Shown: positions 6,673 through 39,534 of the stretch, in pieces | How the letters are laid out: each line of letters starts with the position of its first letter | Position numbering within the stretch: position 1 is the first letter of the stretch | Source: Caryophanales bacterium UBA6768 | GTDB lineage: Bacteria; Bacillota; Bacilli; Bacillales_D; Amphibacillaceae | Assembly: GCA_002453315.1 (NCBI GenBank) | Contig: DKGO01000064.1 | Coordinates: forward strand, 1-43,755 | Direction: 5' to 3' | DNA: 43,755 bases | Position numbers and translations under genes: made by a program | Notes under the pieces: generated by a model | What the model saw: only the letters and a program-made list of their open reading frames with translations | The model's database searches: none | What the model was told of the DNA's origin: nothing

Positions 6673-6718
6673 AAGGGTTGCCATAACCGCATCCTTATTT
6701 TCTACGGGGTAAAAGGAT

Positions 6719-9065: not shown

Positions 9066-9075
9066 TATAAAATCC

Positions 9076-9084
9076 TCCCTTTAT
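9076..9084. repeat. IS4 target-site duplication, left
   Basis: TCCCTTTAT, identical to 10487-10495. It overlaps the ribosome binding site region of the serine recombinase. Confidence 0.9.
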
Positions 9085-10486: not shown

Positions 10487-10495
10487 TCCCTTTAT
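10487..10495. repeat. IS4 target-site duplication, right
   Basis: TCCCTTTAT, the partner of 9076-9084. Confidence 0.9.
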
Positions 10496-10497
10496 AT

Positions 10498-10866: not shown

Positions 10867-10920
10867 GATACCCCTCCATTTTTGTTTTGTATTAGTTAGG
10901 GGTGGCAATAAAGCCACCTT

Positions 10921-11043
10921 TTATTTCATCTTCTTCTCTGCATACAATTTCACAAGTTTCGCTAGCGTTTCAATTAGTTCTTGTCTTTTAATTTCCTCAG
11001 TTGTAGGTAAAACTAATTCTTTGGATTTTGATAATAAACTCAA
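10921..11043 (-). CDS. Small protein upstream of recombinase genes
   Basis: A 40-residue open frame starting at TTG 11043, eight bases after GGAGGT. It reads MSLLSKSKELVLPTTEEIKR and then a helical, Lys-rich tail ending EKKMK. The strong ribosome binding site and position directly before the recombinase fragment suggest a real gene of the same operon. Short proteins of this type precede large serine recombinases in some Firmicute elements; a role as accessory factor is a guess. Confidence 0.5.
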   Translation of the reverse strand: MSLLSKSKELVLPTTEEIKRQELIETLAKLVKLYAEKKMK

Positions 11044-11601
11044 AACACTACACCTCCAGTAATTCCTCTGGGTAAAGTGTTTTTGTAATCAGTATTTTAA
11101 TGGAGTATTAGAACGATGAAATTCTTCTAATACAAAGGTTTTGATGTTGTTTTTTTATGTAACTTCACTAGAGTGTTATTTTTAAAATTTTTGTTGAATG
11201 ATGTTATATCAATTAAAAAAGTGAAATCGCTTGTTACTATAAAAATGTTTTTGGTATTAGTTAACCATAATTACCTTTATTGAAAAAACCTCATTATTGC
11301 CGGATTTAACTTAAAAGAAGCGAATTTTAAGGAAAATAATTAAATGCTGCGAATAATCTCTTTTATTCGGTTTTATTCGGCAATATATTAAATTCGATAA
11401 TAGTTAAACTTACTAGTTACTCTACCTTTAAAGTTAAAACTGGTACATTATTCAATACCAAAATGGTATTTTATTTTGTTCCATAACCCTTATTCCCCTT
11501 TATTATCCAGTCATCATAATTAATAAAAGCGATGAACCATTATAATAGTTATTAATAATTAAAAAGATTAGTAGATATTATAAGTGTTATTAAAACTACC
11601 C
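11044..11601. other. Gene-free AT-rich stretch
   Basis: About 560 bases with no supported gene. I see only a short inverted pair (TATTGCCG near 11294 and CGGCAATA near 11389) and a repeated TTTTATTCGG word near 11371-11390. No promoter or RNA was recognised. Confidence 0.4.
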
Positions 11602-11931
11602 CTAAATTACTTTTACTGGTTTAGGTCCTTTGACAACACCACTTGGAGTTAATAACTCAAGAAAAGTAATGTACTCATTCCTAACAAACTCATTTTTCCC
11701 TAAAGACGTTATATCGTTCATTACTACTTTCCCTACCTTTCCTTCTAATGCCATTGTGAGTAGCACATGACGATTACACTTTATTCCAGAATGATCAACT
11801 ACAATGTAAACCCATTTGTTTAGACCATCATGGTAATCGCAAAAATCTTGCAGACGTTCACCATGTTTAATATCTTGTTCCGAAAGATTGTTCCCACTTG
11901 GCTCATAAACATAAACTATTACATTTCCCAT
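11602..11931 (-). CDS. Resolvase-fold protein lacking the catalytic residues
   Basis: A 109-residue protein that follows the pattern of a serine-recombinase N-terminal domain: a first strand VIVYVYEPSG (in place of YxRVST), LQDFCDYHDG, then YIVVDHSGIKCNRHVLLTMALEGKV (in place of D.G.SG..RP.L..ml), and VVMNDITSLGKNEF (in place of DRLSR). The Ser and Arg residues needed for strand exchange are absent or changed. It ends right after the fold, with no DNA-binding domain. The ATG at 11931 follows GGAGGGTG. It may be a non-catalytic partner or regulator of a recombinase; this is inference from fold pattern alone. Confidence 0.5.
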   Translation of the reverse strand: MGNVIVYVYEPSGNNLSEQDIKHGERLQDFCDYHDGLNKWVYIVVDHSGIKCNRHVLLTMALEGKVGKVVMNDITSLGKNEFVRNEYITFLELLTPSGVVKGPKPVKVI

Positions 11932-12029
11932 TAGACACCCTCCTAGGCATTCCCATTTATGTAATAAATCCCTGTAAATAAATATTCCTCATGTTGCTTA
12001 TAATCTGTTCTAAATAAAATTGTGTTAAT

Positions 12030-12479
12030 TTAATCTGTCACTCTGTATCCTCTATTTCTTAAAATTTCAATTAGACCATGTTCCATTTTAATAAAATGCA
12101 TATGTGCTTTTTCGCGTAATTCATCTGCTTCACTTTCAAAGTAATTATTTTGATTAACCCATTCCAAACTTTTAATGAAAACTTTAATGTAATTCGCGCT
12201 AATTTCATTTTTATTACAAAAGTTACAAATTTTCCTCAGAGTAATCCCCTTTCTTCCCCAAAATCTAGACTCATCTACGTAGAGATGATTTTCATATTCA
12301 AAAAAGTAATTAATAGTTTCTCCAGCACTTTTTATATAAATTATTTCTTCATTCTTAAAATCGTTTTGTTTCCATAAAGAATATAAATACCAACCTAATG
12401 GCTTTAGTCCACAAGCAGATATACCCTCTTCGTTACGAAACATTTCATTTAGCACTTCTAACTCTGTTGATGTCCACAC
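12030..12479 (-). CDS. Unknown protein (149 aa)
   Basis: Starts at GTG 12479 seven bases after AGGAGGGG and reads MWTSTELEVLNEMFRNEEGI. I do not recognise a family. It is rich in aromatic and acidic residues, without signal peptide or membrane segment, and has a Cys pair in ICNFCNK. It lies 12 bp after the 121-aa gene on the same strand and about 100 bp before the resolvase-fold gene, so the three probably form an operon transcribed away from the XRE regulator. Confidence 0.55.
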   Translation of the reverse strand: MWTSTELEVLNEMFRNEEGISACGLKPLGWYLYSLWKQNDFKNEEIIYIKSAGETINYFFEYENHLYVDESRFWGRKGITLRKICNFCNKNEISANYIKVFIKSLEWVNQNNYFESEADELREKAHMHFIKMEHGLIEILRNRGYRVTD

Positions 12480-12491
12480 CCGAATCCCCTC

Positions 12492-12857
12492 CTAAAAGTT
12501 ATATTCTTCATAATCGATTGCAAATTCTCTAATATAATCACTGAACCAAATCAATTCTTCCTTCTTTATTCTCCAAATAATTAACTTTGATAAATTGAAA
12601 AAATGGCTAAAGTCATCATTAAACAAGAATATTAAATCAATTCTCTTATTTTTATTGTTAACTTTATAGATTTTTTTCCATAAATCGGTTGGTTTATTAT
12701 TTGTCGTTACTCCTGCTTCATATAATTCATTTGATATACCATGAATCCCATTTTTTAATTGTCTTCCACACCCTAAAAGTACTAATCCTTCTGAAGTAGG
12801 ACCATCTTTTGCGGATATTTCATTGAGATTTAAAAAATTACTCTTTTTAATGTTCAA
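12492..12857 (-). CDS. Uncharacterised small protein with LLGCG motif
   Basis: A 121-residue protein; the TTG at 12857 is chosen because GGAGGG lies seven bases upstream. A conserved-looking block EGLVLLGCGRQLKNGIHGIS followed by ELYEAGV resembles small proteins on plasmids and conjugative elements that carry an LLLGCGGD...GINEMLxxxGI pattern and a later K-L-x-x-W-R stretch, here KLIIWRIKK. Their function is unknown to me. It is the first gene of the minus-strand group and its promoter region is shared with the XRE regulator. Confidence 0.5.
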   Translation of the reverse strand: MNIKKSNFLNLNEISAKDGPTSEGLVLLGCGRQLKNGIHGISNELYEAGVTTNNKPTDLWKKIYKVNNKNKRIDLIFLFNDDFSHFFNLSKLIIWRIKKEELIWFSDYIREFAIDYEEYNF

Positions 12858-12906
12858 AGTTTTACCCTCCTGCACTTACCCAAATAGGATAATTAAAATA
12901 AATTTT

Positions 12907-13021
12907 ATCCCCTTTTGGTAATTGATTATATATAGGATATCGCATTAATTATTTTTTGTAAATACCTAAAAGGGATATTTTTAAAAAAACTTTGCCTATT
13001 TAGGGTGAATGAGGGTATAAT
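12907..13021. promoter_or_regulatory. Divergent promoter with candidate XRE operators
   Basis: An imperfect inverted repeat has arms ATCCCCTTTTGGTAATT (12907-12923) and AATACCTAAAAGGGA (12961-12975). A third related site GCCTATTTAGGGT is at about 12994. The plus-strand promoter has a TATAAT at 13016. These sit between the XRE gene and the divergent minus-strand operon, where autoregulation would be expected. Confidence 0.5.
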
Positions 13022-13054
13022 ATATTTAATATAATCTATTTACGGAGGGATAAA

Positions 13055-13768
13055 ATGAGTACAGATAGAGTAATGATTGGGGATCGTTTAAAAAAACTAA
13101 TAGAAGAAAATGGTATGGATATTTCCAAAGGCTCATTAATGGAGAGTTATGGATTTAATAAATCAAACATAGATAAATATTTAAACAACTATAGAAGACC
13201 AAACTTAGAAGATATAATTAAATTGGCTGTTATATTTAATACATCCGTTGATTACTTAGTTCAAAATAGTGATTATATTTTAGATACTTGGGATCCAGCC
13301 TTCATAGATGAATTTATTGATTATGCCTCTGAAAAAATGGAAAATCACTTTAAAGATAGACAAAGAATAACTTTACCTAATAGCGATAAAATTTACTCAA
13401 TTTTATTTGGGTTAACCCATTTTCTGATATCTGGAGAGAAAACATTTGAAGATTTTTCACAGAATGAAAAAGAAAGACAAAAGCAAATTATTGACTACAT
13501 TATTAATATTTATTACGGGTTAATAAGAATGAGTAAACAAGATAATTTTAATATTAATGAATTCAAAGGCATATTAGGTGGGATTTCTGACTTTATTGAT
13601 GGGGAATATAGTTTTAAACACACATCTATTATAGATTTTTTAGAGAAGAAAGAAGATATTACGGAATCCGAAAAAATTGAAATTATAAAATCATATATTC
13701 ATTTAAATATGGCTAATAGTCAAAAGGCACTCAATTTATTGGAAGACTTAACCGAGTTAAAAAAGTAA
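13055..13768 (+). CDS. XRE-family transcriptional regulator
   Basis: A 237-residue protein with an N-terminal Cro/CI-type helix-turn-helix at about residues 8-65 (IGDRLKKLIEENG...SNIDKYLNNYRRPNLEDIIKLAVIFNTSVDYLV). The remaining 170 residues are helical and acidic and have no recognised domain; they may mediate dimerisation or signal sensing. ATG 13055 follows GGAGGG. It is divergent from the 12.0-12.9 kb operon across a region with repeated operator-like sites. The same 15-bp word lies before the TnpI-like recombinase, so it probably represses both. Confidence 0.8.
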   Translation: MSTDRVMIGDRLKKLIEENGMDISKGSLMESYGFNKSNIDKYLNNYRRPNLEDIIKLAVIFNTSVDYLVQNSDYILDTWDPAFIDEFIDYASEKMENHFKDRQRITLPNSDKIYSILFGLTHFLISGEKTFEDFSQNEKERQKQIIDYIINIYYGLIRMSKQDNFNINEFKGILGGISDFIDGEYSFKHTSIIDFLEKKEDITESEKIEIIKSYIHLNMANSQKALNLLEDLTELKK

Positions 13769-13775
13769 TTTAGTA

Positions 13776-13796
13776 GGGCTGAAGTAATTTCAGCCC
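13776..13796 (+). terminator. Intrinsic terminator after XRE gene
   Basis: GGGCTGAA and TTCAGCCC arms with a 5-base loop, then ATTTTAATGTTTTC. It lies eight bases past the stop codon and separates the XRE gene from the converging recombinase gene. Confidence 0.7.
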
Positions 13797-13846
13797 ATTT
13801 TAATGTTTTCAAAATAAAAACGCCCATAATATAGGGCGTATTAGAC

Positions 13847-14758
13847 CTAGAATTCTGTTATCCTTAAAGCACTATGCAATTCTTGGATTGACGGGGTAAC
13901 GTATATTCGTGTGGTTTCAATACTGCTATGTCCAGCAAGTTCAGCGATGGATTGAATATTTACACCTTGTTCTGCTAACTGTTTGCAATAAGTGTGGCGC
14001 AGTGAATGGGGAGTTATTTGTATTCCTAGTTGATCGCTGTAGTTCTTAAATATATGCTGTATGGCTCTTGGAGACATACGATTACTTTTACTACTTACTA
14101 GCAAATATTCTGATTCCTTATCCCGCTCTTTTAACCACGTATCAATTGCTCCCTTTGTATTGTCTGTTAAAGGCACAATTCTGTGTTTATTTCCTTTACC
14201 TTTCAGATTGATAATATTTCTTTGAAAGTCCACATCGAAAACCTTAACATTACACATTTCCTGTACACGAAGCCCTAAATTTACTGCTAAATACACAATT
14301 GTTTGATGAAGCATTCCTTTTGTAAAACTTTGTTTTTTTGTCAGTTCAATTGCATGTAGCAGTTTTCCTACTTCTCTTCTGGTTAGCCAGCGAATATTGT
14401 TCTGCTTCTGTATTTTGTTTAATTTAATGTCTTTGGAAATATTGATACTTGTTGAGCCAACAGTGATTAAAAACTCTGACCATCGTATTAATGAAACTAA
14501 TCTGCGATTTACTGTTGCAGGAGCAAAAGTGGGAACTGACTTAAGTTGACTAGCATAATCTTTTAGGTCTGTTGAAGTTAGAGAAGAAATTAAGTAGGGA
14601 GGTTCGGTTCTTTGTTTAATCCATGAATGAAAATGATTGATATCCTGAGAGTAACTTTTGATAGTGTTTAAACTCTTCTCTTTTTCCAAAAGATAACTTT
14701 TAAACTCTTCGATTGACTGCTGTATTGTGACTGGACTATTATTAATAAGTTTTTCCAT
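13847..14758 (-). CDS. TnpI-like tyrosine recombinase
   Basis: A 303-residue tyrosine recombinase. A SAM-like core-binding domain occupies about residues 10-100. The catalytic residues are Arg164 (LGLRVQEM), Lys in LKGKGNKHR, His251 and Arg254 (HSLRHTY), His277 (AGHSSIETTRIY) and the nucleophile Tyr286. It resembles XerC/XerD in length and the TnpI cointegrate resolvases of Tn4430 and Tn5401. The upstream DNA carries four copies of a 12-bp motif arranged as in their IRS sites, which favours TnpI. ATG 14758 follows GAGGAGG. No Tn3-type transposase is adjacent, so this would be an orphan resolution module. An alternative is an integrase of a small element. Confidence 0.85.
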   Translation of the reverse strand: MEKLINNSPVTIQQSIEEFKSYLLEKEKSLNTIKSYSQDINHFHSWIKQRTEPPYLISSLTSTDLKDYASQLKSVPTFAPATVNRRLVSLIRWSEFLITVGSTSINISKDIKLNKIQKQNNIRWLTRREVGKLLHAIELTKKQSFTKGMLHQTIVYLAVNLGLRVQEMCNVKVFDVDFQRNIINLKGKGNKHRIVPLTDNTKGAIDTWLKERDKESEYLLVSSKSNRMSPRAIQHIFKNYSDQLGIQITPHSLRHTYCKQLAEQGVNIQSIAELAGHSSIETTRIYVTPSIQELHSALRITEF

Positions 14759-16971: not shown

Positions 16972-19356
16972 TTATATTCTCACTCGTTTCAACCGAAGTG
17001 AGTTCGTTACAACACTAACAGAACTGAAAGCCATTGCTGCTCCTGCAATCCATGGTGCTAATAGACCAATTGCTGCAATTGGGATTCCTGCGCTATTATA
17101 GGCAAAAGCCCAAAATAAATTTTGTCGGATATTTTTAATGGTTGCATGACTTATTTTGATTGCTTTTGGAATTAGGAGTAGTTCTCCGCCAAGAATGGTG
17201 ACATCAGCTGCTTCAATAGCTACTTCGGTACCTGTTCCTATCGCAATTCCAATATCCGCAATTGCTAAGGCAGGTGCATCATTAATACCGTCTCCAACCA
17301 TAGCGACTTTTTTCCCCTGTTCCTGAATTCCCCTTACTTTATCAGCCTTTTCTTCAGGTAGAACTTGAGAAATTACATGATCAATACCTACCTGCTTAGC
17401 AATTGCACTAGCAGTTCTTTCATTGTCACCAGTTAGCATAACAACATCTAAGCCATCATTTTTCAGCTGTTTAATCGCTTCGGCAGCAGTTTCCTTAATC
17501 GTATCAGCCACAGCAACAATTCCTTTGTATTCTCCATCTATTGCAATTATCATTGCTGTTTTACCTTCTATCTCATACGTAGTTAGCTCTTTTTCAACTT
17601 CACTAATATTTATATTGTTATCATTCATTAATTTCCTTGTACCTACAAGAACATTCTTATTTGAAATAACTGCTTGAATACCATGACCAGGAATAGCAGA
17701 GAAGTTATCGACTTCCAGTAGCTCTAGGCCTTTTTCAGTAGCATAAACCACAATCGCTTCCGCCAAAGGGTGTTCGGAACCTTTCTCGGCACTAGCTAAC
17801 AATTGCAAAATCTCATCATCACCTGTAAAATCAGTTACTTCTGGTTTACCTTTTGTAATTGTTCCCGTTTTATCGAGAACAATTGTATTTAATTGGTGCG
17901 TTCGTTCTAGATGCTCACCTCCTTTAAATAGGATACCGTTTTCAGCTGCTTTTCCTGTTCCAACCATTATTGATGTTGGTGTGGCTAACCCTAATGCACA
18001 TGGACAGGCGATAACCAGAACAGCAATAGATGCAACTAAAGCAGGCTCAAGATTGCCTGGGGTTACTACTGTTATCCAAATAATAAAAGTTAAGATAGCT
18101 ATTCCAACAACAATTGGAACAAAGTATCCTGAAATTACATCGGCTAAACGTTGTATCGGCGCTTTTGACCCTTGAGCGTCTTCAACGGCTTGAACGATAG
18201 ATGCAAGGGCAGTATCTTTACCAACCTTTGTAGCTTCCATTTCAATGGTTCCATTTTTATTAATGGTTGCACCAATAATAGTAGATTGAATATCTTTTTC
18301 TACTGGTATTGACTCACCTGTAATCATTGATTCATCGACAGATGTTCTCCCTTTCACGACAATACCATCGACGGGTATTTTTTCACCAGGTTTTACGATC
18401 AAACGATCCTCGACAACTACCTCTTCAATCGGAATCATTGTTTCTTTACCTTCTCTAATTACCCGAGCCTCTTTTGCTTGTAAGTTAAGAAGCTTTGAAA
18501 TAGCAAGTGTTGTTTTGCTCTTGGCATTAGTCTCTAGGTATTTTCCGAATAATATTAAAGTAATTAATATCGCACTCGTTTCAAAATAAAGATGAGGGAT
18601 ATATCCTGCGTTACCAATTGTTTGAATTGCTTCGTATAAACTATAAAAATAAGCAGCACTTGTCCCGAGTGCAACTAATACATCCATATTGGCGCTTCCA
18701 CTACGCAAGTTTTTATATGCTCCATCATAAAATTGCCATCCAACGATAAATTGTACTGGAGTTGCCAAAGCAAATTGGAACCAAGGATTCATTAAAATAT
18801 TAGGTACACTTATTCCTAACAAATGATCCAACATTGTTACTAGCAATGGTGCAGATAATAAAGCAGAGATAATCAATTTTATTTGCATCTGTTTTATTTG
18901 CTTTTCTTTTCGTGATTGTTTTTCTTCTTTATTTGCTTTTTCCTTTGCATCATAACCTAATTTCTGGATAACCTCGACAATTTGAGCTTCTCCAATCAAC
19001 CCAGGATTATATTCAATTACAGCCGTTTCATTTGTAAGATTAACAGCCGCACGCTTTATGCCTTCTTGTTTATTCAATACTTTGTCAATCCGTGATGAAC
19101 ATGCTGCACATGTCATGCCTAATACATCGAATTCAGCCTTCTCTGTTTGAACACCATATCCTATTTTTTCTATTTTAGAAGTGATGTCATTTACAGTAGT
19201 AGCTTCTGGATCAAAGTGGATACTTGCTTTTTCTGTCGTTAAATTAACTTGTGCCTCGACACCATCTATTTTATTTAAAACCTTTTCCACTCTCGACGAG
19301 CAGGCAGCACAAGTCATTCCAGTTATGCCAACTGTTATATGTTTTGCTTCACTCAT
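16972..19356 (-). CDS. copA: CopA Cu(I)-exporting P1B-type ATPase
   Basis: About 794 residues from the ATG at 19356, chosen because GGGGGGATT lies just upstream; an ATG farther upstream overlaps csoR. Two N-terminal HMA domains each carry [10 protein letters not shown]. Eight membrane segments follow, with the transport motif [11 protein letters not shown], the TGES actuator motif, phosphorylation motif DKTGTITKG, the SEHPLAEA motif of P1B pumps and [10 protein letters not shown]. It pumps Cu(I) out of the cytosol. The gene follows csoR, so it is expected to be induced by copper through CsoR. All key residues are present. Confidence 0.96.
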
Positions 19357-19370
19357 GTTTAATCCCCCCA

Positions 19371-19673
19371 TCATTTGGAAAAATGCTTCATTACTTCTAT
19401 TAATTCTTCAATGGCATCATTTCCTTCACCAGATTTTACAGCATGACTCACACAATGCTTCATATGGCGCTCTGCAACAGTGAATCCTACTTTTTTCAAC
19501 GCTGCATTAATTGCACTGATCTGTACTAAAATATCTATACAATATCGGTCTTCTTCAACCATTTTTTGAATCCCACGTACCTGACCTTCAATTCGCTTCA
19601 AACGATTAATAACTGCTTGTTTCTCAGTATTAGTTCGTGGAGTTATAGGATGGTCATGAAGATATTTATCCAT
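19371..19673 (-). CDS. csoR: CsoR copper-sensing repressor
   Basis: A 100-residue protein of the CsoR/RcnR family (DUF156): [20 protein letters not shown], then the Cu(I) ligands Cys in DRYCIDIL and His and Cys in RHMKHCVSH (x-C-H-C pattern of CsoR). The start is set at ATG 19673, nine bases after GAAAGGA; ATGs upstream lack a site. It heads the csoR-copA-copZ operon and has an operator-like sequence just upstream. Apo-CsoR binds DNA and Cu(I) releases it. Confidence 0.94.
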
Positions 19674-19705
19674 TTCGTTCATCCTTTCATTCATCATGTT
19701 TATAC

Positions 19706-19930: not shown

Positions 19931-20455
19931 CTAAGTTAACTGCATTGTTGTAATGCAAGTTCCGTCTTGTTCAAAGGTTGAAAACTCTGAATCCACTTTT
20001 TTTCCATTATGATTAATGATTATATTATACGTTTTATTTCGTGGCAGCCATAAATCAATAAATCCATTTTCCTCTGTTTTTAATGTATCTTCCAGCACCA
20101 CATTGCCTTCCATGTCTTCAATATAAACATCAAATTCTTCCTCTACCATTTCACCTTGACAACCTGTAAGACTGTGGTTAGTACAAGGATGGGTTTCATT
20201 GATGTAAGGTGCGATGGAAACAAAAAATTCATCCTCAGGCAATGGATAGACAGTCTCGCTTTCATCATTTTTTGTAACGATTAATTCCTCTGATGTGATA
20301 GAGGCCGTTTCATTTTTTGTGTCACCTATACTATAATCATGAACTAATTCCTTGAGGTCTTCTGTATTAATTTCCTCGGATATACTATCATTGCTATTAC
20401 AAGCAACTAATGAAATAGATGCCAATAACACTAACAAACTTAGTTTAAATTTCAA
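19931..20455 (-). CDS. cueP: CueP-family copper-binding lipoprotein
   Basis: A 174-residue protein with a lipoprotein signal (lipobox LVAC, lipid Cys at about residue 19) and an acidic linker. The CueP domain is readable: EFFVSIAPYINETHPC, SLTGCQGEMV, NGFIDLWLPRNKTYNI and DGTCITTMQL. CueP of Salmonella is a periplasmic Cu(I)-binding protein; here the lipid anchor would hold the domain outside the cell membrane. The three mature Cys are in HPC, TGCQG and GTCIT. It is monocistronic, with its own terminator, just downstream of the csoR promoter region. Confidence 0.88.
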   Translation of the reverse strand: MKFKLSLLVLLASISLVACNSNDSISEEINTEDLKELVHDYSIGDTKNETASITSEELIVTKNDESETVYPLPEDEFFVSIAPYINETHPCTNHSLTGCQGEMVEEEFDVYIEDMEGNVVLEDTLKTEENGFIDLWLPRNKTYNIIINHNGKKVDSEFSTFEQDGTCITTMQLT

Positions 20456-22115: not shown

Positions 22116-22384
22116 ATTTTCACCTATTTCAACAATATGTATTACCTTGATGAATCATAGGATGTAGACTGTCCCATCCTTAAATCAAGTTCATTATTGA
22201 TTTCAATAATTCCATTTATACTTTAAATTCCTTTTGTGCAGAAATTATGGAGTTTAAACTCCTGTAACAATACTGTTAATTGTTTGTAATAATATTCATG
22301 AATAGAAAGTACCGCATTAATCATACTTTGCTTTTTTACATACATACAATTAAATAATGGACAAGGTTGAAAGGGGCTAGAATA

Positions 22385-22945
22385 ATGGGGATGTCATTGT
22401 ATTTAATGCTATTTAGCATTGCATTACTTTCAATAATTGTGGTTGGTAAAACTGTATACTACAGAAAGAAAATAGCTTGTATGTCTGGAATGATGATTGC
22501 CATGACTTTAGGAATGAGTGTTGGTTTAACTATAGGGGTGATATTTGGGATTTTGTTTTCAGGCAATTTTTTTATTGCAACAGTACTGGGTATGTTAGTT
22601 GGAATGATTGTGGGCTTTTTGGCTGGCGTACCCGTAAGTATTATGGCAATACTAGACGGAATGCTCTCCGGGCTTATGGGTGGGATGATGGGGGTTATGC
22701 TTGGAGAAATGATTACGGTAGAATATCGTGATGCAATTGCGAAAATAATGTTTTTTTTATTCCTCGGCACATTATTAATCCTTCTTCGTTTGATTAATCA
22801 AGAGGTTAATAAAACAACAAATATTTATAGCAATCTATTAATTTCAGTCATTCTTTTTGGATTTTTCTTTATTGCATTTGAACTATTTGATCCTGTGTTT
22901 ATTAATACTGATGCTCCTATACAAAACCATTCGGGGCATAATTAA
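22385..22945 (+). CDS. Met-rich polytopic membrane protein
   Basis: A 186-residue protein with about six hydrophobic segments. Met and Gly cluster in the membrane: MSGMMIAMTLGMSVG at ~30-45, then GMLVGMIVG, and GMLSGLMGGMMGVMLGEM at ~100-117. The C-terminus ends in NHSGHN. It starts at ATG 22385 behind AAAGGGG. I know no function. Met-rich membrane helices and terminal His are typical of Cu(I) handling, and its neighbours are copper genes, so a role in copper transport or sensing is a reasonable inference. A terminator follows. Confidence 0.7.
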   Translation: MGMSLYLMLFSIALLSIIVVGKTVYYRKKIACMSGMMIAMTLGMSVGLTIGVIFGILFSGNFFIATVLGMLVGMIVGFLAGVPVSIMAILDGMLSGLMGGMMGVMLGEMITVEYRDAIAKIMFFLFLGTLLILLRLINQEVNKTTNIYSNLLISVILFGFFFIAFELFDPVFINTDAPIQNHSGHN

Positions 22946-23052: not shown

Positions 23053-23577
23053 TTAATCTAAAATATGTTCGTAATGCCGAAATGTGTTGAACTGTTCTTG
23101 GATAGATGCATGTGGCGTATATGTCCAACCCATTCTAGTGATGAATTCACTGTAAATTTCAAGCATTTCATATTGCTGTATTGCCATGTTTACATGCATA
23201 TTTCTTACATATGGGTCTTGCATCATTAACGCAGAAACGTAATTATTATTAGACATATTTTTTGCAGTGGTATGACCATCCAAAGAGATCCATTTATCTT
23301 GGAAGTTATTGTTTTCCTCCTTTTCTATCCGCATATAAAAGTTTCTAAAATACTCATTTATTGGAGTAAGTTCAAGATGTTCATTTAGATATGGATTTAT
23401 CAAAGCCAACATGACACGAACATGATCCCGCATCACACTCGTGTGTGAAACGATAATCTCTTTCAATGTAGCATTAGTTACTTTAGTTTGATACAATTCC
23501 AGTTTATTAATTACACCCTCGTGAGCAATTAAGTGATCAGCCATTAATCCAAGATCTACAGCTGGCAAAGAATTCAT
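23053..23577 (-). CDS. CotF/ferritin-like helical protein, paralog A
   Basis: A 174-residue protein predicted to be a four-helix bundle. It shares with the divergent 23887 gene the start AVDLGLMADHLIAHEGVINK, a middle block SLDGHTTAKNMSNNNY, and the end MAIQQYEMLEIYSEFITRMG followed by W. Such a layout, ending in MGW and a short tail, resembles spore-coat CotF-type ferritin-like proteins. His and Met are frequent (about 8 His and 14 Met). The ATG at 23577 follows AAGAGG. Function is unknown; copper binding or spore-coat localisation are both possible. Confidence 0.6.
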   Translation of the reverse strand: MNSLPAVDLGLMADHLIAHEGVINKLELYQTKVTNATLKEIIVSHTSVMRDHVRVMLALINPYLNEHLELTPINEYFRNFYMRIEKEENNNFQDKWISLDGHTTAKNMSNNNYVSALMMQDPYVRNMHVNMAIQQYEMLEIYSEFITRMGWTYTPHASIQEQFNTFRHYEHILD

Positions 23578-23886
23578 ATAAGATAACACCTCTTATAAAT
23601 AGGTCAATTCTTTATACTGTATGAAATTATTTATAATTAGTGACCCATCTAAGGAAACAATGGGGAATTTTATAAATATGCAGGAAGATCGCACTCCTAA
23701 ATTAGATTTAATACAACATTTTGGATAATAATAGGCAAGTTTTTCTTTGAATATTTTCAATACTATTTACATTCATCGGGAGGGGGACTTTGCAAGTTTA
23801 CATCAACAATATATCCAAAAAAATAAAATAAGTTCCATTTTTTTGGACAATATAAGAGAAACTGCTTTTGAGGAGGAATATCAATA

Positions 23887-24429
23887 ATGATAAAAACGGT
23901 AGATGTTGGGTTAATGGCAAACCATTTATCTGCACATAAATCAATAATTAAACGATTAGAATTGTATACAACTTATATTCAAAACACACAAATATTATCG
24001 ATTATAAACCAACAAATCATGATGATGAAAAATCACGTACAAGTCATGAATCAATTGTTAGATCCAAAACAGTCAACTGTAAATTTACCCCCAATCCCAA
24101 GCAATTCTGGTACTTTCTCTAACCAAATTGCATCTAATTATGAAATAAGTGAAAAAGATATTTCAATTGATGCCCATTTTACTGCTAGTGCTATGGCGAA
24201 AGAAAATTTTAATTCATCAGAAAACATGAAAAATAAACAAGTAAAAAAATTACATTCACCAATGGCACTGCAACAGGCAACTATTGCTGAAATGTATGAG
24301 GATTTAATGAGTCAGATGGGGTGGATGAATCAGCCCAATGCATCTGTTACGGAACAGACTTCCGTAATCACGCATTTAAATACAATTCCACACCCTGAAA
24401 TAACAAATAATCAACAACCTAGACATTGA
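23887..24429 (+). CDS. CotF/ferritin-like helical protein, paralog B
   Basis: A 180-residue paralog of the 23053 gene: VDVGLMANHLSAHKSIIKRL, QQIMMMKNHVQVMNQLL, DISIDAHFTASAMAKENF and MALQQATIAEMYEDLMSQMG. It is Met- and His-rich in the helices, with a flexible tail. ATG 23887 follows GAGGAGG. It heads a plus-strand operon with the MFS, His-rich and Csp genes (gaps of 30, 18 and 72 bp). Its position first in a copper-protein operon suggests metal binding or storage, but no ferroxidase-type E-ExxH set is visible. The duplicate is about 300 bp away on the other strand. Confidence 0.62.
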   Translation: MIKTVDVGLMANHLSAHKSIIKRLELYTTYIQNTQILSIINQQIMMMKNHVQVMNQLLDPKQSTVNLPPIPSNSGTFSNQIASNYEISEKDISIDAHFTASAMAKENFNSSENMKNKQVKKLHSPMALQQATIAEMYEDLMSQMGWMNQPNASVTEQTSVITHLNTIPHPEITNNQQPRH

Positions 24430-24459
24430 AAAGGATGAGAAATAAAAGGGGTACCTAAA

Positions 24460-25779
24460 TTGATACAAAACTTAAAAACAATGGATAGGACAATGTTAGT
24501 TTTACTGATAGGCGTACTTTTAACTCATCTAGGTACATACATGGTTATTCCGATCCTACCAATCATGTTTTCGGAAACGATAGGATTGAGTTTAGGCACG
24601 GTCGGAATGTTGTTAGCAACTTACTCCATATCCTTTCAATTCGGGAGTATGTTTGGGGGCTTTTTAGCGGACAGAATTGGAAGACGGATCGTTATTGGTG
24701 GTGGTGCCTTAATTGGGGCTGTCGGATTTGCTGGTTTAGGTCTATTCACTATCTTTATACCTGTCTTACTAACTACAGCTACTGCGGGTTTCGGAAATGG
24801 TTTGAATGCTCCTTCCACCAAAGCAGCAATAGCAGCACTTGCTTCAAAGGAAAATCAAACAACTGCATTTTCTTTTAGGGGTGTTGCTGCCAATATTGGA
24901 ACAGCTATAGCTGGCTTAACTGTATTTTTCCTTGTTGTAGGTTCACCAACAATTATTTTTTGGATTGCGGGCACCATTTATATCGGTGTCGCTCTGAAAA
25001 GCTGGTTCCTATTACCAAAAAATTGTGGTGATGCTTCCTGTCCAGAAATACCAAAAGGTGCTTATTTGGAAGTGTTTAAAAACAAACCTTTTGTAGTTTT
25101 TGGTCTAATCAGCATTCCAATATGGGCATTATATGCACAATTAGCCTTAGCTTTACCCATCCGTGCAACAGATGTACTGGCAGAACCTAGTAATGTTGCT
25201 TTAATATGGACCATTAATAGTGGAATTGTTATTCTTCTACAAAATTTGATTGCTAAACAGGTTATTAGTCGAATTCATCCATTTGTTGCTCTTTCTATTG
25301 GACTTATTTTCATTGGTGGTGGAATAGGAACGCTATTTTGGGCAAGTTCGTTTTTTGGTCTTATTATAAGTGGATCCATCTTTGTGTTAGGAGAAATGTT
25401 AATTTTACCAACCATTGATAGTACCATCTCACAATTATCGAAAGCTGGATTGATCGGCTTGTTCTTCGGATTAGCTAACGTGCTATCTGGATTAGGAGAG
25501 GCTGCTGGTAACTTTGTTGGAGGCAGACTTCTTGAATTAGGCAAAGAAATATCATACTTGCCTTGGCTGATTTACGCCATATCTGGTGTTGTAATAGGTT
25601 TAATTGTTATGGTACTAATAAAATGGAAACCTATGCAACATTCTTTAAAACAGGCAGCTCAACAAAAGAATAAGCCCGAAAAAGCACCACGAGTTAATCC
25701 TGGACCGTCTAACCACTTATCCCATCCCTTTCATAGCTGGGAAGAAGAAGTATTTTTCCGTAAAAAACAACGCACTTAA
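24460..25779 (+). CDS. MFS transporter in copper operon
   Basis: A 439-residue major-facilitator protein with about 12 membrane segments. Motif A is clear between segments 2 and 3 (GGFLADRIGRRIVIGG), and segment 5 has a Gly-rich antiporter-like stretch (FGNGLNAPSTKAA). It resembles drug/cation antiporters of the 12-TM class. The start is TTG 24460, eight bases after AAAGGGG; the first ATG is at 24481. The C-terminal tail is cytosolic and basic. Substrate is unknown. Being between a CotF-like gene and copper-binding genes it may move copper or a copper complex, by inference. Confidence 0.85.
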   Translation: MIQNLKTMDRTMLVLLIGVLLTHLGTYMVIPILPIMFSETIGLSLGTVGMLLATYSISFQFGSMFGGFLADRIGRRIVIGGGALIGAVGFAGLGLFTIFIPVLLTTATAGFGNGLNAPSTKAAIAALASKENQTTAFSFRGVAANIGTAIAGLTVFFLVVGSPTIIFWIAGTIYIGVALKSWFLLPKNCGDASCPEIPKGAYLEVFKNKPFVVFGLISIPIWALYAQLALALPIRATDVLAEPSNVALIWTINSGIVILLQNLIAKQVISRIHPFVALSIGLIFIGGGIGTLFWASSFFGLIISGSIFVLGEMLILPTIDSTISQLSKAGLIGLFFGLANVLSGLGEAAGNFVGGRLLELGKEISYLPWLIYAISGVVIGLIVMVLIKWKPMQHSLKQAAQQKNKPEKAPRVNPGPSNHLSHPFHSWEEEVFFRKKQRT

Positions 25780-25797
25780 ATAAAGAGGAGAGATAGT

Positions 25798-26502
25798 ATG
25801 GAGCAACACCATCATTCGCAACATCAAAACCGACTGCAAAACCATAATTTAAATAATGAAATTAACGTTTCCGTTTCTTATAAAGACAATTTGATAACTA
25901 TTTATATAGAAAATATAGACGACATCAAAACACCAATAAAATTAGTTAAAAATCATGAAAAATTTATGCATTTAATTATAGTCAGTGAAGACCTTAATGA
26001 TTTTTTTCATTTGCATCCAGAAAAAGTAGATGCAAATCATTTTGAACAAGAAATTAATTTAAGTAACGAAAAGAAATACAAAGCATTCGTTGATATTATT
26101 GTAGAGGGGAAAGACTACGTCATAAAACCCATAGCTGTCAACAGCAGTAATAAAAATGAACAAAAATCACCGCTAAAACTTGATACATTAAATAAAAAGG
26201 AAATTCAAGGATATTACATTGAAATGGAACATGGGCATTTTATGGTGAACAAAACAATCGAATTAAAATTTAAAATAAAAAATGCTATACCTGATCCTTA
26301 TTTAGGCGCATTGGGTCATGTTGTAATTATTGATGAACAGGCAGAAAAATTTATTCATGTTCATCCAAAATCAAATATTGATACCATATTTGAAGCAAAA
26401 TTTAAAAAGGCTGGCATCTATAAACTATGGGCCGAATTTAAATTTGGGCAAGATATTATTGCCTTCCCGTATGTTTTTTCGGTTACAGAAACACTTCATT
26501 AA
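25798..26502 (+). CDS. His-rich cytosolic two-domain beta protein
   Basis: A 234-residue soluble protein without a signal peptide. The N-terminus is His-rich (MEQHHHSQHQNRLQNHN). Two similar beta-sandwich-like units follow: about 20-110 (FMHLIIVSEDLNDFFHLHPE, then KKYKAFVDII) and about 140-230 (LGHVVIIDEQAEKFIHVHPK, then FKKAGIYKLWAEF). The repeated 'HLHP/HVHP' plus 'KY/KLW' pattern is found in proteins that accompany copper pumps, but the function is not established. ATG 25798 follows GAGGAG. The His clusters suggest metal binding in the cytosol. Confidence 0.65.
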   Translation: MEQHHHSQHQNRLQNHNLNNEINVSVSYKDNLITIYIENIDDIKTPIKLVKNHEKFMHLIIVSEDLNDFFHLHPEKVDANHFEQEINLSNEKKYKAFVDIIVEGKDYVIKPIAVNSSNKNEQKSPLKLDTLNKKEIQGYYIEMEHGHFMVNKTIELKFKIKNAIPDPYLGALGHVVIIDEQAEKFIHVHPKSNIDTIFEAKFKKAGIYKLWAEFKFGQDIIAFPYVFSVTETLH

Positions 26503-26574
26503 TTTTTTATGCATAATCACATTCAATTTGAGAACACTACGATTGTTAAATATAATTAAAGGAGTGTCGGTTTG

Positions 26575-26919
26575 ATGGGAGTACTTTCTAGTTCACCATC
26601 CAATATGGATCAATGTATTGAAGAATGTTTAAGGTGTGCACGTGCCTGTGAAGAATGTCATACAGCATGCCTGCAGGAACCAGATGTTCAAGCACGTATT
26701 ACATGTATGCAGCATTTAAATGACTGTGCTGAAATTTGTTTTCAAGCCGCAGCTCTTATGGCTAGAAACAGCCAAAGTGCCAAGAATTTCTGTAACCTTT
26801 GTGCCACCATGTGTGAAGCTTGCGCTACTGAATGTGACAAATTTCAGGATACACATTGTAAAGAGTGCGCTAATATTTGTCGCTCTTGTGCAGAAATATG
26901 CAGACAGATGGCTTCATAA
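26575..26919 (+). CDS. Four-helix-bundle copper storage protein (Csp)
   Basis: A 114-residue protein with 19 Cys arranged along four helices: CIEECLRCARACEECHTAC, then CMQHLNDCAEIC, CNLCATMCEACATEC, and CKECANICRSCAEIC. This matches the DUF326/Csp family, whose cytosolic members (Csp3) bind many Cu(I) ions per monomer inside the bundle. There is no signal peptide, so it is the cytosolic Csp3 type. ATG 26575 follows AAAGGAG. It is the last gene of the operon and has a strong terminator. It would act as a Cu(I) buffer or store. Confidence 0.93.
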   Translation: MGVLSSSPSNMDQCIEECLRCARACEECHTACLQEPDVQARITCMQHLNDCAEICFQAAALMARNSQSAKNFCNLCATMCEACATECDKFQDTHCKECANICRSCAEICRQMAS

Positions 26920-27151: not shown

Positions 27152-27990
27152 TTATATTTTCTTATGTTTATTCATGACATTCTTATCATTATACTTTTCT
27201 TTCACTACCTTACGACGATACACAATTAATACCATTGCTCCAACTATTAATAAAACTGAAATGAATTGGGCAACTCGTAATTGTCCTAAGTACAAACTAT
27301 CTGTTCGCATACCTTCAATCATAAATCGTCCGATTGAATATAACATGATATAACTTATAAACACTTCTCCTCGTAATGGATTGTATCTACGGAAAATCAA
27401 TAGCAAAATAAAGATTACTAGATTCCAAAAGGATTCATATAAAAATGTAGGATGTACATTACACCATCAATAGTCATTTGATTCATAATAAAATTCGGTA
27501 GGTATTGATGAAAGTTATTATATGCAGCCTCTGATATTACGCCCCCGTGAGCCTCTTGATTCATAAAATTTCCCCAACGTCCTATCGCCTGACCAAGAAT
27601 CAAGCTAGGCGCTACAATATCAGCTATTTGCCAAAAGGATACTTTTTTAATATGCGTATAAACAATTGCTGTTAATACGGAACCGATTAAAGCGCCATGA
27701 ATAGCAATACCACCATTCCAGACTGCAAATACTTCCCACCAAGGTTTATTTGCATATTGTTCCCATTCAAAAACAACATAGTAAACTCGTGCAAAAACAA
27801 TGGCAATTGGCACTGCAAATACAATTAGGTCAATGATCAAGTCTTTTTTTAAACCAAGTCGATTAGCTTCTTTCGTAGCTAAAAATAGTCCAATAATAAC
27901 CCCAGTGATAATAATGACACCGTACCAATAGATGGTGAAAGGTCCGAATTGTAAAAACACAGGATCCAATGCAGGGTTGCTATTCGTCAA
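27152..27990 (-). pseudogene. lgt: Prolipoprotein diacylglyceryl transferase with a one-base frameshift
   Basis: The first part (start TTG 27990 behind GGAAGAGGAG) gives [19 protein letters not shown], then the Lgt signature [16 protein letters not shown]. Near 27462 one base is missing: the frame should continue [15 protein letters not shown] into the second open segment ([40 protein letters not shown]). Restored, it is about 280 residues with seven membrane segments, the normal Lgt length. Lgt attaches diacylglycerol to lipoprotein Cys residues. It neighbours two lipoprotein genes (cupredoxin and CueP), so a dedicated copy for these is plausible. Either a pseudogene or a sequencing error in a short A/T context. 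Confidence 0.8.
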
Positions 27991-28409
27991 AAGAACCACT
28001 CCTCTTCCTTTAATCATCCTACTAACTAATATTTTCCTCATGCTTATTTTTCTAAATATCACCAATTCCTTTAGTAGCAATGAATTACTAAGATTATAAA
28101 TTTCAAATTTTAAATCAGAGTTTTATAAAGCCTGCTACAATTGAAAGCACATGATAAAAATGATGGATTAATAGTATCCTCAATAACTTTAGCGATATTA
28201 TGTGCAGTTTTTATCCACTTTGATTAAAAAATTTTTAAAATATGTTTATGTGTTACTAAATAAAATCAATATTTCCATTTGATTGCTTACTTAACTGTCC
28301 CATAATTGCCTTATTTTCTGCACAATTAGTTGACATTTAATTAATACAATTACTTTTAAGTAGTTATTACAACTATCAATTAAGGGATATCAAATAGGAG
28401 GGGAATTTA
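27991..28409. other. Intergenic stretch before the cupredoxin gene
   Basis: About 400 bases between the divergent lgt and cupredoxin genes. It contains the lgt ribosome binding site and the GGAGGGG site of the cupredoxin gene. No CsoR-like operator or further gene was recognised. Confidence 0.4.
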
Positions 28410-28820
28410 TTGAAAAAAAGTATATTAGCAACAATATTATTAGGTTTGATTCTAGTGCTTGCGGCATGTGGTGGAGGTAATAGCGATAGTGACATGAATA
28501 CCGAAGTAGATAATTCAACTGAGGAGACAGGTACCAATTCTTCAGAAGATTCTACTGCTAATAATGATATTGAAATTAAAGCAACAAACTTTGAATTTGA
28601 CCAGGCTGAATATACTGTAAAAGCTGGAGAAGAGGTTAAGATAAGCCTAGTAAATGAAGAAGGATCACATGGAATTGCTATTGATGATCTGGATGTGAAA
28701 ATAGATGGTGACGGTGATGCTACTTTTACACCAGAAGAACCAGGAGAATACACAATATATTGCAGCATTCCTTGTGGACAGGGCCATAGTGATATGGTTT
28801 CCACTTTGATAGTGCAATAG
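28410..28820 (+). CDS. CuA-type cupredoxin lipoprotein
   Basis: A 136-residue lipoprotein starting at TTG 28410 after GGAGGGG. The lipobox is LAAC, then an acidic Ser/Thr linker (residues ~22-52) and a cupredoxin domain. The copper-site loop CSIPCGQGHSDM has the complete dinuclear CuA pattern of cytochrome oxidase subunit II (C-x3-C-x3-H-x2-M), with the first His in EGSHGIAID. As a stand-alone extracytoplasmic domain it could bind or oxidise Cu, or shuttle electrons. It is flanked by lgt and ends with its own terminator. Confidence 0.88.
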   Translation: MKKSILATILLGLILVLAACGGGNSDSDMNTEVDNSTEETGTNSSEDSTANNDIEIKATNFEFDQAEYTVKAGEEVKISLVNEEGSHGIAIDDLDVKIDGDGDATFTPEEPGEYTIYCSIPCGQGHSDMVSTLIVQ

Positions 28821-30452: not shown

Positions 30453-32561
30453 TTACGCTTTTAATAATTTCGCATTAATTGCAACAATTATCGTACTTAG
30501 GCTCATAAGAACAGCTCCAACTGCTGGACTTAAAACTATTCCAATTGGAGCTAAAATCCCTGCCGCTAATGGAATAGCAAAAATATTGTATCCAGTTGCC
30601 CACCATAAGTTTTGAACCATTTTTCGATATGTTTTTTTGGAAAGATCCATTAGATCGACAACATCTTTTGGGTTACTCTTAACTAGTACTACATCGGCTG
30701 TCTCCATAGCTACATCTGTTCCAGCTCCGATTGCAATTCCTAGGTCAGCTGTCGCTAATGCTGGAGCATCGTTTACTCCATCACCAGTCATTGCAACCTT
30801 CCATCCTTTGGCTTGAATTTGCTTCACCTGATTTGCCTTATCATCTGGTAACACTTCTGCATACACTTCATCTATATCCAATTGTTTTGCCACCCAATGG
30901 GCCACTTTTTCGTTATCTCCTGTAAGCATGATGGAATGAACGCCTTTTTCCTTTAACTCGGAAATTGCTTCTTTTGCAGACTCACGAATGATATCTGCAA
31001 GTGCAATCATACCAATTAGTTCATCATCTAATAATACAAATATTACCGTCTTACCTACTTCAGACAATTTGTTAAATTTCTGTTTATCATAATCCATATT
31101 TTTACTTTTAACAAAACCAGGGCTTACTGCATTTACTTTTTTCCCCTCTATTATTCCTTCAATCCCTTTACCAGTTATTGAATTAAATTCTGAGATAGGC
31201 TTAAGATTAATACCTCTGTCTAGTGCTGACTTTACTATACCCGCAGCAATTGGGTGTTCTGAATTTTGTTCCAAGCTTGCACCCCAAACAAGGACTTCCT
31301 CTTCACCAAATCCTTCACTTGGTATGATATCTGTTATACCGAATTTCCCTTCTGTTAGTGTACCTGTTTTATCAAAAACAACTGCATTTAGATTTCGTGC
31401 GTTTTCAAAATTAGCTCGATTACGAATTAATAACCCTTTATTAGCCGATAAAGCAGTAGACACTGCAATGACAAGAGGAGCCGCTAAACCTAAGGCATGT
31501 GGACAGGTAATAACCATTACTGTTACCATTCGTTCTAATGCTACATAGAGAGGATAGCCAAGTGCAAGCCATATAAATAATGTTGCAAATCCTGCTGTTA
31601 AGGCAAGATAAAATAGCCACTTGGCTGCACGGTTTGTTAAATCTTGTGTTTTTGATTTCGATTCCTGTGCTTCTTTTACCAAGGTAATAACTTGAGATAA
31701 GTAGGATGCTTCTCCTGTTTTTTTAACTTGTATAATGAGAGATCCTTCATTATTTACTGACCCACCTATCACTTCTTCTTCTTTACCCTTTTCCACTGGG
31801 ACAGATTCACCAGTCAGCATTGATTCATCTACGGTTGATTTACCGTCAAGGATTTGTCCGTCAACAGGTATTTTTTCTCCAGGTTTAACGAGCACCCTAT
31901 CCCCATTGGTAAGTTGTGAAATAGGGACATCATGAACTTCATCGTTGTCATCTAGTTTATGAGCTTCATTAGGCATCAGTTTTACAAGTTTTTCTAATGC
32001 ATTAGAGGCCCCCATTACTGATCGCATTTCAATCCAATGTCCTAATAACATAATATCTACTAAAGTGGCCAATTCCCAAAATAAATTGTGCCCTTCCCAA
32101 CCAAATACGACAAGAGCACTATAAACGTATGCGATTGTAATGGCTAGACCAATAAGTGTCATCATTCCAGGATTCTTATCTTTTAATTCACTAATACCGC
32201 CAGTAATAAATGGCCAGCCACCATAGAAAAAGACGAAGGAGGAAAGTACGAATAAAATATATTGGTCATTCGCAAATCGCCAGTCAACCCCCATAAAATC
32301 TTGAATCATTGGTGATAGAGCGAGAATTGGAATAGTAACAATTAAAGATATAAAAAATCGTTTCTTAAAATCTTCTACCATATCACCATGATCATGATGA
32401 CCGTGATGACCATGTTCTTCATGAGTATGACCGTGTCCTTCGTGCTTATGATGATCATGTGCTTCATGATTTCCTTCATGTTTATGTACATGCTTTGGGT
32501 CTTGGTGTTTATGATGTCCATGTTCACTATGCATGTTTTTTTCGTTTTCATGTTTTTCCAT
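30453..32561 (-). CDS. copB: CopB copper P1B-type ATPase
   Basis: A 702-residue pump. The first ~70 residues are extremely His-rich ([20 protein letters not shown] and more), replacing HMA domains. The transport motif is [10 protein letters not shown], the CPH type of CopB pumps; with [17 protein letters not shown] and [12 protein letters not shown] all intact. CopB members export Cu(I)/Cu(II) or Ag(I). The start is ATG 32561 behind GAGGG; an ATG nine bases upstream is less well placed. A CsoR-type operator lies in the upstream region, so it probably shares control with copA. Confidence 0.95.
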
Positions 32562-32638
32562 TGATATCACCCTCTAAAATTAATTTATCTCGTATCCGTA
32601 TTTTGAACAATACATCCCTTTCTTATTTCATTACATAC

Positions 32639-38354: not shown

Positions 38355-39534
38355 TTAACCAGCACAACAAGATAATTTTGAAACATCTTTATCAAACGTA
38401 AGGGCAGCTAGTTTTAACCCTTCTGCCATTGTTAAATATGGGACAAGGGTTTCGCGAATATCATCTATGGTTAAACCGAATTTGACAGCTAATGTGGCTG
38501 CATAAATTACGTCTCCTGAATTTTCTGCCACCACATGAGCCCCTAAAACTTTCATTGTTTTCGTGTCTGCCACTAATTTAAACACGCCTGTTGTTTCCCG
38601 ATTAACCAATGCCCTCGGAACGGCATTTAACGGTAAAACGGATGTTTTAACCTCATAGCCTTTTTCTTTTGCCTGTTGCTCTGTTAAACCTACCGTTGCA
38701 ATTGCCGGGGCCGTAAACGTAACCCCTGGAACCACATCTAAATTTAGCTTTTTGCTCAGTCCTCCGATAGCATTTCCTGCCGCAACTGCTCCTTGATAAG
38801 CTGCCACATATACAAATTGAGGACCAAGTGTGACATCTCCTGCTGCATAGATACGCGAATTCGTTGTTTTCGAATAGTCATCAATCATGATTTCACCACG
38901 AGACCCTACCTCAACACCTGCTGCCTGTATATTCAGCGTTTCTGTGTTCGGAGTTCTGCCTGTCGCGATAAGTAGCTGTTCTGCTTCAATGATTCGCTTT
39001 TTTCCATTTAGCTTTTTTAATTTCTCCATCTTGTTCAATTCGTTCAAAGGATGCTCCTGTTACTAGATTAATACCTTGTTCTGTTAAGGCTTGCATAATG
39101 GCTTCTGAAATTTCTGGGTCATATTCTTTTAACAGACGTGAGCTTCTTTGCATCAATGTTACTTCTGAACCTAAATGATGGAATAGTTGTCCTAATTCCA
39201 TTCCGATATATCCAGAACCAATAACCGTAAGGCGTTTTGGTACTTTATGTAATTCAAGTAACGTCGTGCTTGTTAAATAATCTACATCTTCTAATCCACG
39301 AATATTTGGCACAGAAGGTAAATAACCTGTTGCAATTAAAAATCGTTTGGCTGATAACTGCATCCCATTCACTTCAACAGTTTTTTCATCCACGAATCTT
39401 GCTTCTCCTTTTATTAATTCAAAGCCGTAGTCATCAATCAAATCTACATATTTTGAGTTTCGAAGATCATTCACCAGCTCGTTTTTTTGCTTAATCAGTG
39501 GTGCTAAATCAACTTTGCCGGCTGAGGTGTTCAA
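38355..39534 (-). pseudogene. merA: Broken second mercuric reductase
   Basis: Two overlapping frames together give the last ~390 residues of MerA. The first (from 39534) begins [20 protein letters not shown] and runs to IEQDGEIKK. There about 11 bases are missing compared with the 33238 copy, and the second frame resumes [18 protein letters not shown] and continues to KLSCCAG. The FAD-binding N-terminus and the active-site Cys pair are absent because the gene is cut at about 39535 by an IS21-like end. It cannot make active enzyme. The protein differs at many positions from the first copy, so it is not a recent duplicate. Confidence 0.88.

What the first reader, a model, noticed from the sequence alone, without database searches (positions are those of the whole stretch)
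23053..26919. Candidate new copper-handling cluster: CotF-like pair, MFS, His-rich protein and Csp
A plus-strand operon joins a Met/His-rich CotF-like helical protein, an MFS transporter, a His-rich cytosolic protein with repeated HLHP/HVHP units, and a 19-Cys Csp3-type store. A paralog of the first gene is divergent. Only Csp has an established copper role. Such a set could take up, buffer and store copper in the cytosol, possibly for spore coat multicopper enzymes, rather than simply export it.
Basis: partly seen in the sequence, partly recalled or inferred. Interest (0 to 1): 0.75.

Follow-up and report, generated by a model that had tools for sequence, protein, structure and literature searches.

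The report
Copper-linked spore-coat helix-bundle proteins
In a metal-resistance island of a spore-forming bacterium, a known copper-storage protein sits with two spore-coat-like proteins whose most conserved residues are nearly all copper-liking ones (methionine and histidine), one of them apparently switched on late in spore formation; this points to an undescribed way of handling copper while spores are made.

Summary
The genes are real and lie in a Bacillaceae copper island (CsoR family, CopA, CueP, second copper ATPase, cupredoxin). Csp is a Csp3: its 19 Cys all align with those of B. subtilis Csp3. The CotF-like pair is a four-helix-bundle family: seven of eight invariant residues are Met/His in 62 sequences and again in 47 of 47 fresh ones; in 10 canonical long CotF proteins only H17 is kept throughout. 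Copper genes lie near 26/62 CotF1 and 12/16 CotF2 genes, against 2/40 random windows and 1/20 canonical CotF loci. CotF1 genes carry a sigma-K promoter pattern (held-out 26/43 strict; control genes 4/482); CotF2 genes do not (0/17). The His-rich protein is a two-domain beta-sandwich with seven near-invariant His. Neighbouring pairs of the operon recur; the exact four-gene order was seen only in the window. Best reading: a cytosolic copper buffer and store with a late-sporulation arm. Copper uptake by the MFS protein is unsupported. No metal binding, copper response or expression was measured.

The parts
23053..23577 (-). CotF1: CotF-like four-helix-bundle protein (174 aa from ATG 23577; ORF opens at GTG 23589), divergent from the operon
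23615..23641 (-). sigma-K-type promoter pattern AC-N16-CATACAGTA, 37 bases before the CotF1 ATG
   Evidence: same pattern before CotF1 relatives, 26/43 held-out strict
23887..24429 (+). CotF2: paralogue of CotF1, first gene of the operon; core Met/His M10 H13 H17 H50 M114 H123 M126
24460..25779 (+). MFS transporter, MdtH/NorA-like, substrate unknown
25798..26502 (+). His-rich cytosolic protein: two beta-sandwich domains, each with H-x12-HxHP (H58/H71/H73 and H174/H187/H189)
26572..26919 (+). Csp3-type cytosolic copper storage protein (likely start ATG 26575), 19 Cys
19371..19697 (-). CsoR/RicR-family copper-type repressor (neighbouring copper unit)
16972..19374 (-). CopA-type copper P-type ATPase with HMA domains
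19931..20455 (-). CueP-family copper protein
22367..22945 (+). Met/Gly-rich membrane protein; related proteins lie beside CotF1 in other copper loci
28410..28820 (+). cupredoxin lipoprotein
30453..32570 (-). second copper-translocating-type P-type ATPase (TIGR01511 622.6 bits, cut-off 397), called CopB here

Best explanation
CotF1 and CotF2 belong to a copper-associated branch of the spore-coat/ferritin-like four-helix-bundle proteins whose core is lined with conserved Met and His, where Csp lines the same kind of bundle with Cys. CotF2, the MFS protein, the His-rich protein and Csp3 would form a cytosolic copper buffer and store beside the export arm of the island: Csp3 holds Cu(I) on thiolates, the His-rich protein holds copper on two three-His sites and hands it on, CotF2 holds Cu(I) on Met/His. 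CotF1 would be made in the mother cell by sigma-K, as Csp3 and the laccase CotA are in B. subtilis, and would carry or retain copper during coat assembly, either to fill coat multicopper oxidases or to keep copper from the forespore. Shown: gene content, family conservation, fold prediction, promoter pattern, neighbourhood statistics. Inferred: metal identity, binding, transfer, coat location, every role of the MFS protein.
For: Invariant residues M10 H13 H17 H50 N107 M114 H123 M126 in 62/62 sequences and 47/47 fresh ones; in 10 canonical CotF proteins H17 10/10, M10 1/10 (7 gapped there), the other six 0/10. Four-helix model, pLDDT 86.2, best fold match a spore coat protein. On helices A, B and D the conserved Met/His lie within 61 degrees of the hydrophobic face. 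Copper genes within 6.5 kb: CotF1 26/62, CotF2 12/16, random windows 2/40, canonical CotF 1/20; arsenic/cadmium/mercury markers 8/62, 0/16, 0/40, 0/20. Sigma-K pattern before CotF1: first set 13/20 strict and 18/20 relaxed against 6/513 and 7/513 control genes; held-out 26/43 and 36/43 against 4/482 and 7/482; canonical CotF 1/20. Recurring gene pairs: CotF2-HisR-Csp in L188, L189, L190; multicopper oxidase-CotF2 in L071 and L187 (Pfam); CotF1 then Csp, same strand, in L088 and L233. PMC9484137 (abstract, Discussion) reports Csp3 and CotA under sigma-K and Csp3-dependent CotA activity.
Against: No metal binding was measured. 36/62 CotF1 genes have no copper marker within 6.5 kb, and most of the more distant CotF1 genes lack one (score under 140: 2/16), so the family may serve more than copper or another metal. 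CotF2 has no sigma-K pattern (0/17) and no CsoR-type box was found before the operon, so its control is unknown. On helix C the hydrophobic moment is weak and M103, M114 lie off it. The exact four-gene order was seen only in the window. One canonical CotF gene also lies beside CopZ-CopA-CsoR (L127). Many loci are close relatives; at 60% identity CotF1 falls to 37 clusters with 24 strict, 32 relaxed and 14 copper-linked, CotF2 to 9 with 5 copper-linked.
Confidence: 0.58

Rival explanations
1. A plain copper-detoxification cluster: CotF2, MFS, His-rich protein and Csp only lower free copper in growing cells; the sporulation link of CotF1 is inherited from its coat ancestry and has nothing to do with copper.
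For: Copper export genes fill the island; CotF2, MFS, HisR and Csp genes show no sigma-K pattern (0/9, 0/6, 0/4, 0/9).
Against: Canonical CotF genes carry the pattern in only 1/20, so it is not simply inherited; CotF1 itself recurs in copper loci (26/62) and stands before Csp in L088 and L233.
Confidence: 0.25
2. The CotF family binds another cofactor in its Met/His core, such as haem (as cytochrome b562 and bacterioferritin use Met/His; recalled) or iron, and is only drawn into metal islands.
For: Ferritin-like fold matches, among them bacterioferritins and Dps; over half of the CotF1 genes lie away from copper markers.
Against: No Glu column reaches 90% conservation in the family alignment, so the usual diiron ligands are missing; neighbours are copper markers far more often than arsenic, cadmium or mercury ones for CotF2 (12/16 vs 0/16).
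Confidence: 0.12
3. Hitchhiking: unrelated genes collected in a mobile metal island without joint function.
For: Integrase, recombinases and a transposase lie in the window at 7467-14758; arsenic, cadmium and mercury genes follow the copper ones.
Against: Short same-strand spacing in the window, and the same neighbours in other genomes: CotF2-MFS in L051, L073, L077, L078; CotF2-HisR in L001, L188-L190; Csp-MFS-HisR on plasmid pBpOF4-01.
Confidence: 0.05

Closest known systems
Csp3 cytosolic copper storage proteins (B. subtilis Csp3/YhjQ)
   Same: The window's Csp: DUF326, cytosolic, 19 of 19 Cys aligned with BsCsp3. A Csp gene beside a four-helix coat-type gene recalls csp3-yhjR, which PMC9484137 describes as a sigma-K operon with an inner coat protein.
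   Different: In the window Csp is last in an operon with CotF2, MFS and the His-rich protein and shows no sigma-K pattern of its own; the partner is a CotF-type protein. YhjR's family was not checked here.
Coat_F / DUF3231 spore coat family (structure 2rbd, BH2358)
   Same: Same fold; H17 shared with canonical members.
   Different: Six of the seven invariant Met/His are absent from, or in one case rare in, 10 canonical relatives; copper-gene neighbourhood; sigma-K pattern in most CotF1 genes against 1/20 canonical ones.
CopM / DUF305 copper proteins
   Same: Helical-bundle copper-resistance proteins; DUF305 3bt5 is Foldseek rank 3 and CopM 5ffd rank 34.
   Different: E-values 0.22 and 0.96 only; no DUF305 sequence match; CopM is known here from a search listing (PMC4335983).
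CcoA-type MFS copper importers
   Same: MFS fold, copper neighbourhood.
   Different: Only one Met column (M312) is invariant and none other reaches 90%; nearest named families are MdtH and NorA.

Membership tests
Csp3 | DUF326 Cys-rich repeats | tested here: met
   38.8 bits, cut-off 20.4
Csp3 | Cys positions of the Cu(I) core | tested here: met
   19/19 aligned with BsCsp3 5fig (alignment, counted)
Csp3 | no Tat signal (cytosolic, unlike Csp1) | tested here: met
   114-115 aa; match to Csp3 begins at residue 13; the Csp1 model hits only 31.5 bits, cut-off 100
Csp3 | binds many Cu(I) | not testable with these tools
   bench assay needed
Coat_F (PF07875) | score over Pfam cut-off | tested here: inconclusive
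   CotF1 18.3 vs 25.7 bits; three relatives pass: G483 31.7, G381 30.0, G437 28.3
Coat_F (PF07875) | CotF-type four-helix fold | tested here: met
Coat_F (PF07875) | located in the spore coat | not testable with these tools
   only a sigma-K promoter pattern, and only for CotF1
diiron ferritins | conserved Glu/His iron ligands | tested here: not met
   no Glu among columns conserved at 90% or more in 62 sequences
DUF305/CopM | DUF305 sequence match | tested here: not met
   no DUF305 at E up to 0.1
DUF305/CopM | same fold | tested here: inconclusive
   Foldseek ranks 3 and 34 at E 0.22 and 0.96
CcoA copper importers | conserved Met pairs in membrane helices (motif recalled) | tested here: not met
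   M312 is the only Met column at 90% or more in 24 sequences
sigma-K regulon | AC-N16/17-CATANNNTA before the gene (letters recalled; two-block layout and a 14-16 base gap in PMC517825, passages) | tested here: met
   CotF1 only: window plus 12 of the other 19; 26/43 held-out; CotF2 0/17

The most novel reading that the evidence does not exclude
CotF1 and CotF2 are a second class of four-helix-bundle copper protein, lined with Met and His instead of Cys, and CotF1 is the coat-side partner that loads or locks copper into the spore late in sporulation, making the spore a deliberate copper sink or copper supply.
Probability: 0.35. Interest if true: 0.85.

Novelty: new variant of a known kind. 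Interest (0 to 1): 0.66.

Why it matters
PMC9484137 leaves open where the copper for the spore laccase comes from without Csp3 and whether a coat partner helps. A Met/His-lined coat-type protein, under sigma-K and often beside copper genes, is a concrete candidate that laboratory sporulation genetics can test. It would also extend cytosolic copper storage beyond thiolate bundles and give a role to protein families that carry no name (CotF1, CotF2, the HxHP beta-sandwich protein, found on 203 plasmid records, 100 of them Staphylococcus).

Tried and rejected

Row choices: the neighbourhood counts leave the window out; the promoter counts include it (1 of 20 CotF1, 1 of 9 CotF2). The sigma-K pattern was noticed by eye on 14 of the 20 first CotF1 genes, so the 43 are the fair test. 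Papers: PMC9484137 (abstract, Discussion, passages), PMC517825 (passages), the rest from search listings only. Absence of a CotF-copper paper rests in an open-access library.
Full report
What is there. The window is a metal-resistance island of a Bacillaceae-type genome or plasmid; no whole genome is held for it. Around the finding lie a CsoR/RicR-family repressor, a CopA-type ATPase, CueP, a Met/Gly-rich membrane protein, a cupredoxin lipoprotein, a broken lgt and a second copper-type ATPase, followed by mercury, arsenic and cadmium genes. The five reading frames of the finding are as described.

Csp. It is a Csp3: DUF326, best solved relatives are Csp3 structures with BsCsp3 first, E 1.9e-18, and all 19 Cys coincide with the 19 Cys of BsCsp3.

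CotF1 and CotF2. Sequence models place them only weakly. The AlphaFold model of CotF2 (mean pLDDT 86.2; helices 4-30, 34-58, 89-113, 117-143) matches the spore coat protein 2rbd best. Across 62 relatives down to 28% identity the invariant columns are M10, H13, H17, H50, N107, M114, H123 and M126. They recur in 47 of 47 sequences not in that alignment (51 genes, 4 identical to earlier rows). In 10 canonical long Coat_F proteins from the same genomes, H17 is kept in 10, M10 in 1 (7 have a gap there), the other six in none (the alignment of such distant proteins is uncertain). The conserved Met/His of helices A, B and D point to the hydrophobic side (within 61 degrees); helix C is unclear. Together this looks like a Met/His-lined bundle core, the counterpart of the Cys-lined core of Csp. 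That it binds copper is inference.

Neighbourhood test. All fetched loci were searched with the same references and score limits. Copper markers lie within 6.5 kb of 26 of 62 CotF1 and 12 of 16 CotF2 genes, against 2 of 40 arbitrary windows of the same or related genomes (both only cupredoxins; Fisher p 1.8e-5 and 2.5e-7) and 1 of 20 canonical CotF loci; arsenic, cadmium or mercury markers in 8/62, 0/16, 0/40 and 0/20. The loci are not independent: at 60% identity there are 37 CotF1 and 9 CotF2 clusters, 14 and 5 of them copper-linked. The copper link is denser among CotF1 genes close to the window's (18/27 with score 140 or more, 2/16 below). The family is patchy: 17 of 348 genomes of one order, 40 of 159 of one family, 8 of 22 of another.

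Operon pieces. CotF2-MFS: L051, L073, L077, L078. CotF2-MFS-HisR: L078. CotF2-HisR: L001, L188, L189, L190, the last three followed by Csp. Csp-MFS-HisR: plasmid pBpOF4-01 (L002). Multicopper oxidase directly before CotF2: L071, L187. CotF1 then Csp on one strand: L088, L233. In the protein listings at least 12 contig lengths occur both among His-rich and among MFS hits (each capped at 120 rows). The full order CotF2-MFS-HisR-Csp was seen only in the window.

Sigma-K. Before the CotF1 start at 23577 lies AC-N16-CATACAGTA (23641-23615, minus strand). The pattern AC-N16/17-CATANNNTA within 130 bases occurs in 13 of 20 first-set CotF1 genes (relaxed last base 18), against 6 (7) of 513 control genes. 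It was noticed by eye on 14 of those 20. In 43 further CotF1 genes it occurs in 26 (36), against 4 (7) of 482 control genes (p 1.4e-28 and 1.4e-41), 4 (5) of 414 genes in arbitrary windows and 1 of 20 canonical CotF genes. CotF2 genes: 0 of 17. Among copper-gene relatives in these loci the relaxed pattern is rare (Csp 0/9, HisR 0/4, MFS 0/6, CopB 0/6, CsoR 1/5, DacA 1/5). The consensus letters are recalled; PMC517825 (passages) gives the two-block layout and 14-16 base gap between a 5-base and a 10-base element. So CotF1 very probably is a late mother-cell gene; expression itself was not measured.

His-rich protein. A model of pLDDT 89.6 shows two beta-sandwich domains. Seven His (53, 58, 71, 73, 174, 187, 189) are conserved in 120/120 or 119/120 of the listed homologues (120 listed of 538); the two halves share H-x12-HxHP. 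57 of the 120 have an N-terminal membrane-like stretch, the window's has none. A relative follows CsoR-CopA-CopZ on a Staphylococcus plasmid (L005; one record of 100 looked at) and lies in copper clusters of Exiguobacterium and Mesobacillus plasmids. A copper-binding role is likely by context, not shown.

MFS. MdtH 90.5 bits, cut-off 469; NorA the nearest solved structure. The clade nearest the window has a C-terminal HPFxxW tail (53/75 close, 0/45 distant). Nothing tells import from export.

Mechanism. A buffer and store beside an export arm, with a late-sporulation branch through CotF1. PMC9484137 (abstract and Discussion read) shows that B. subtilis Csp3 supplies the coat laccase CotA, that both are under sigma-K and that csp3 seems to share an operon with a coat protein gene, yhjR. 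The window's set is reminiscent of that pair, with a CotF-type protein in the coat role.

Novelty. Csp3 is known. The CotF fold is known. A copper-linked, Met/His-lined branch of it with its own sigma-K pattern was not found in print in the searches, which cover open-access papers only.

Noticed in passing
window 27152-27406 and 27418-28080 (-): Both frames match lgt, the second half in another frame (LGT 169.4 and 57.1 bits): the copper-island lgt looks broken.
   Followed up: partly
window 38355-39534 (-): A pyridine nucleotide-disulphide oxidoreductase split over two frames.
   Followed up: no
window 22367-22945; L002 3272-4108: The Met/Gly-rich membrane protein has a relative on pBpOF4-01 annotated as a cupredoxin-domain protein, as if the two parts were fused there.
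   Followed up: no
window 32641: A CsoR-like box TACCCCTATATGGTA lies about 70 bases before the second copper ATPase.
   Followed up: no
L190, before the CotF2 at 6324-6899 (-): Remnant of a CotF1-like reading frame directly upstream of CotF2 (read).
   Followed up: no
L127: A canonical CotF gene lies beside CopZ-CopA-CsoR: the one control locus with copper genes.
   Followed up: no
plasmid record NZ_CP137483.1: Listed as Citrobacter portucalensis but matches at the same coordinates (6309-6911) as Staphylococcus capitis plasmid records NZ_CP092859.1 and, without identical coordinates, many others; possibly a mislabelled record.
   Followed up: no
L051 6285-6719 (-): A DUF2383 ferritin-like protein follows CotF2-MFS.
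   Followed up: no
window 3075-3749 (-): TIR-domain protein near the recombinases of the island.
   Followed up: no
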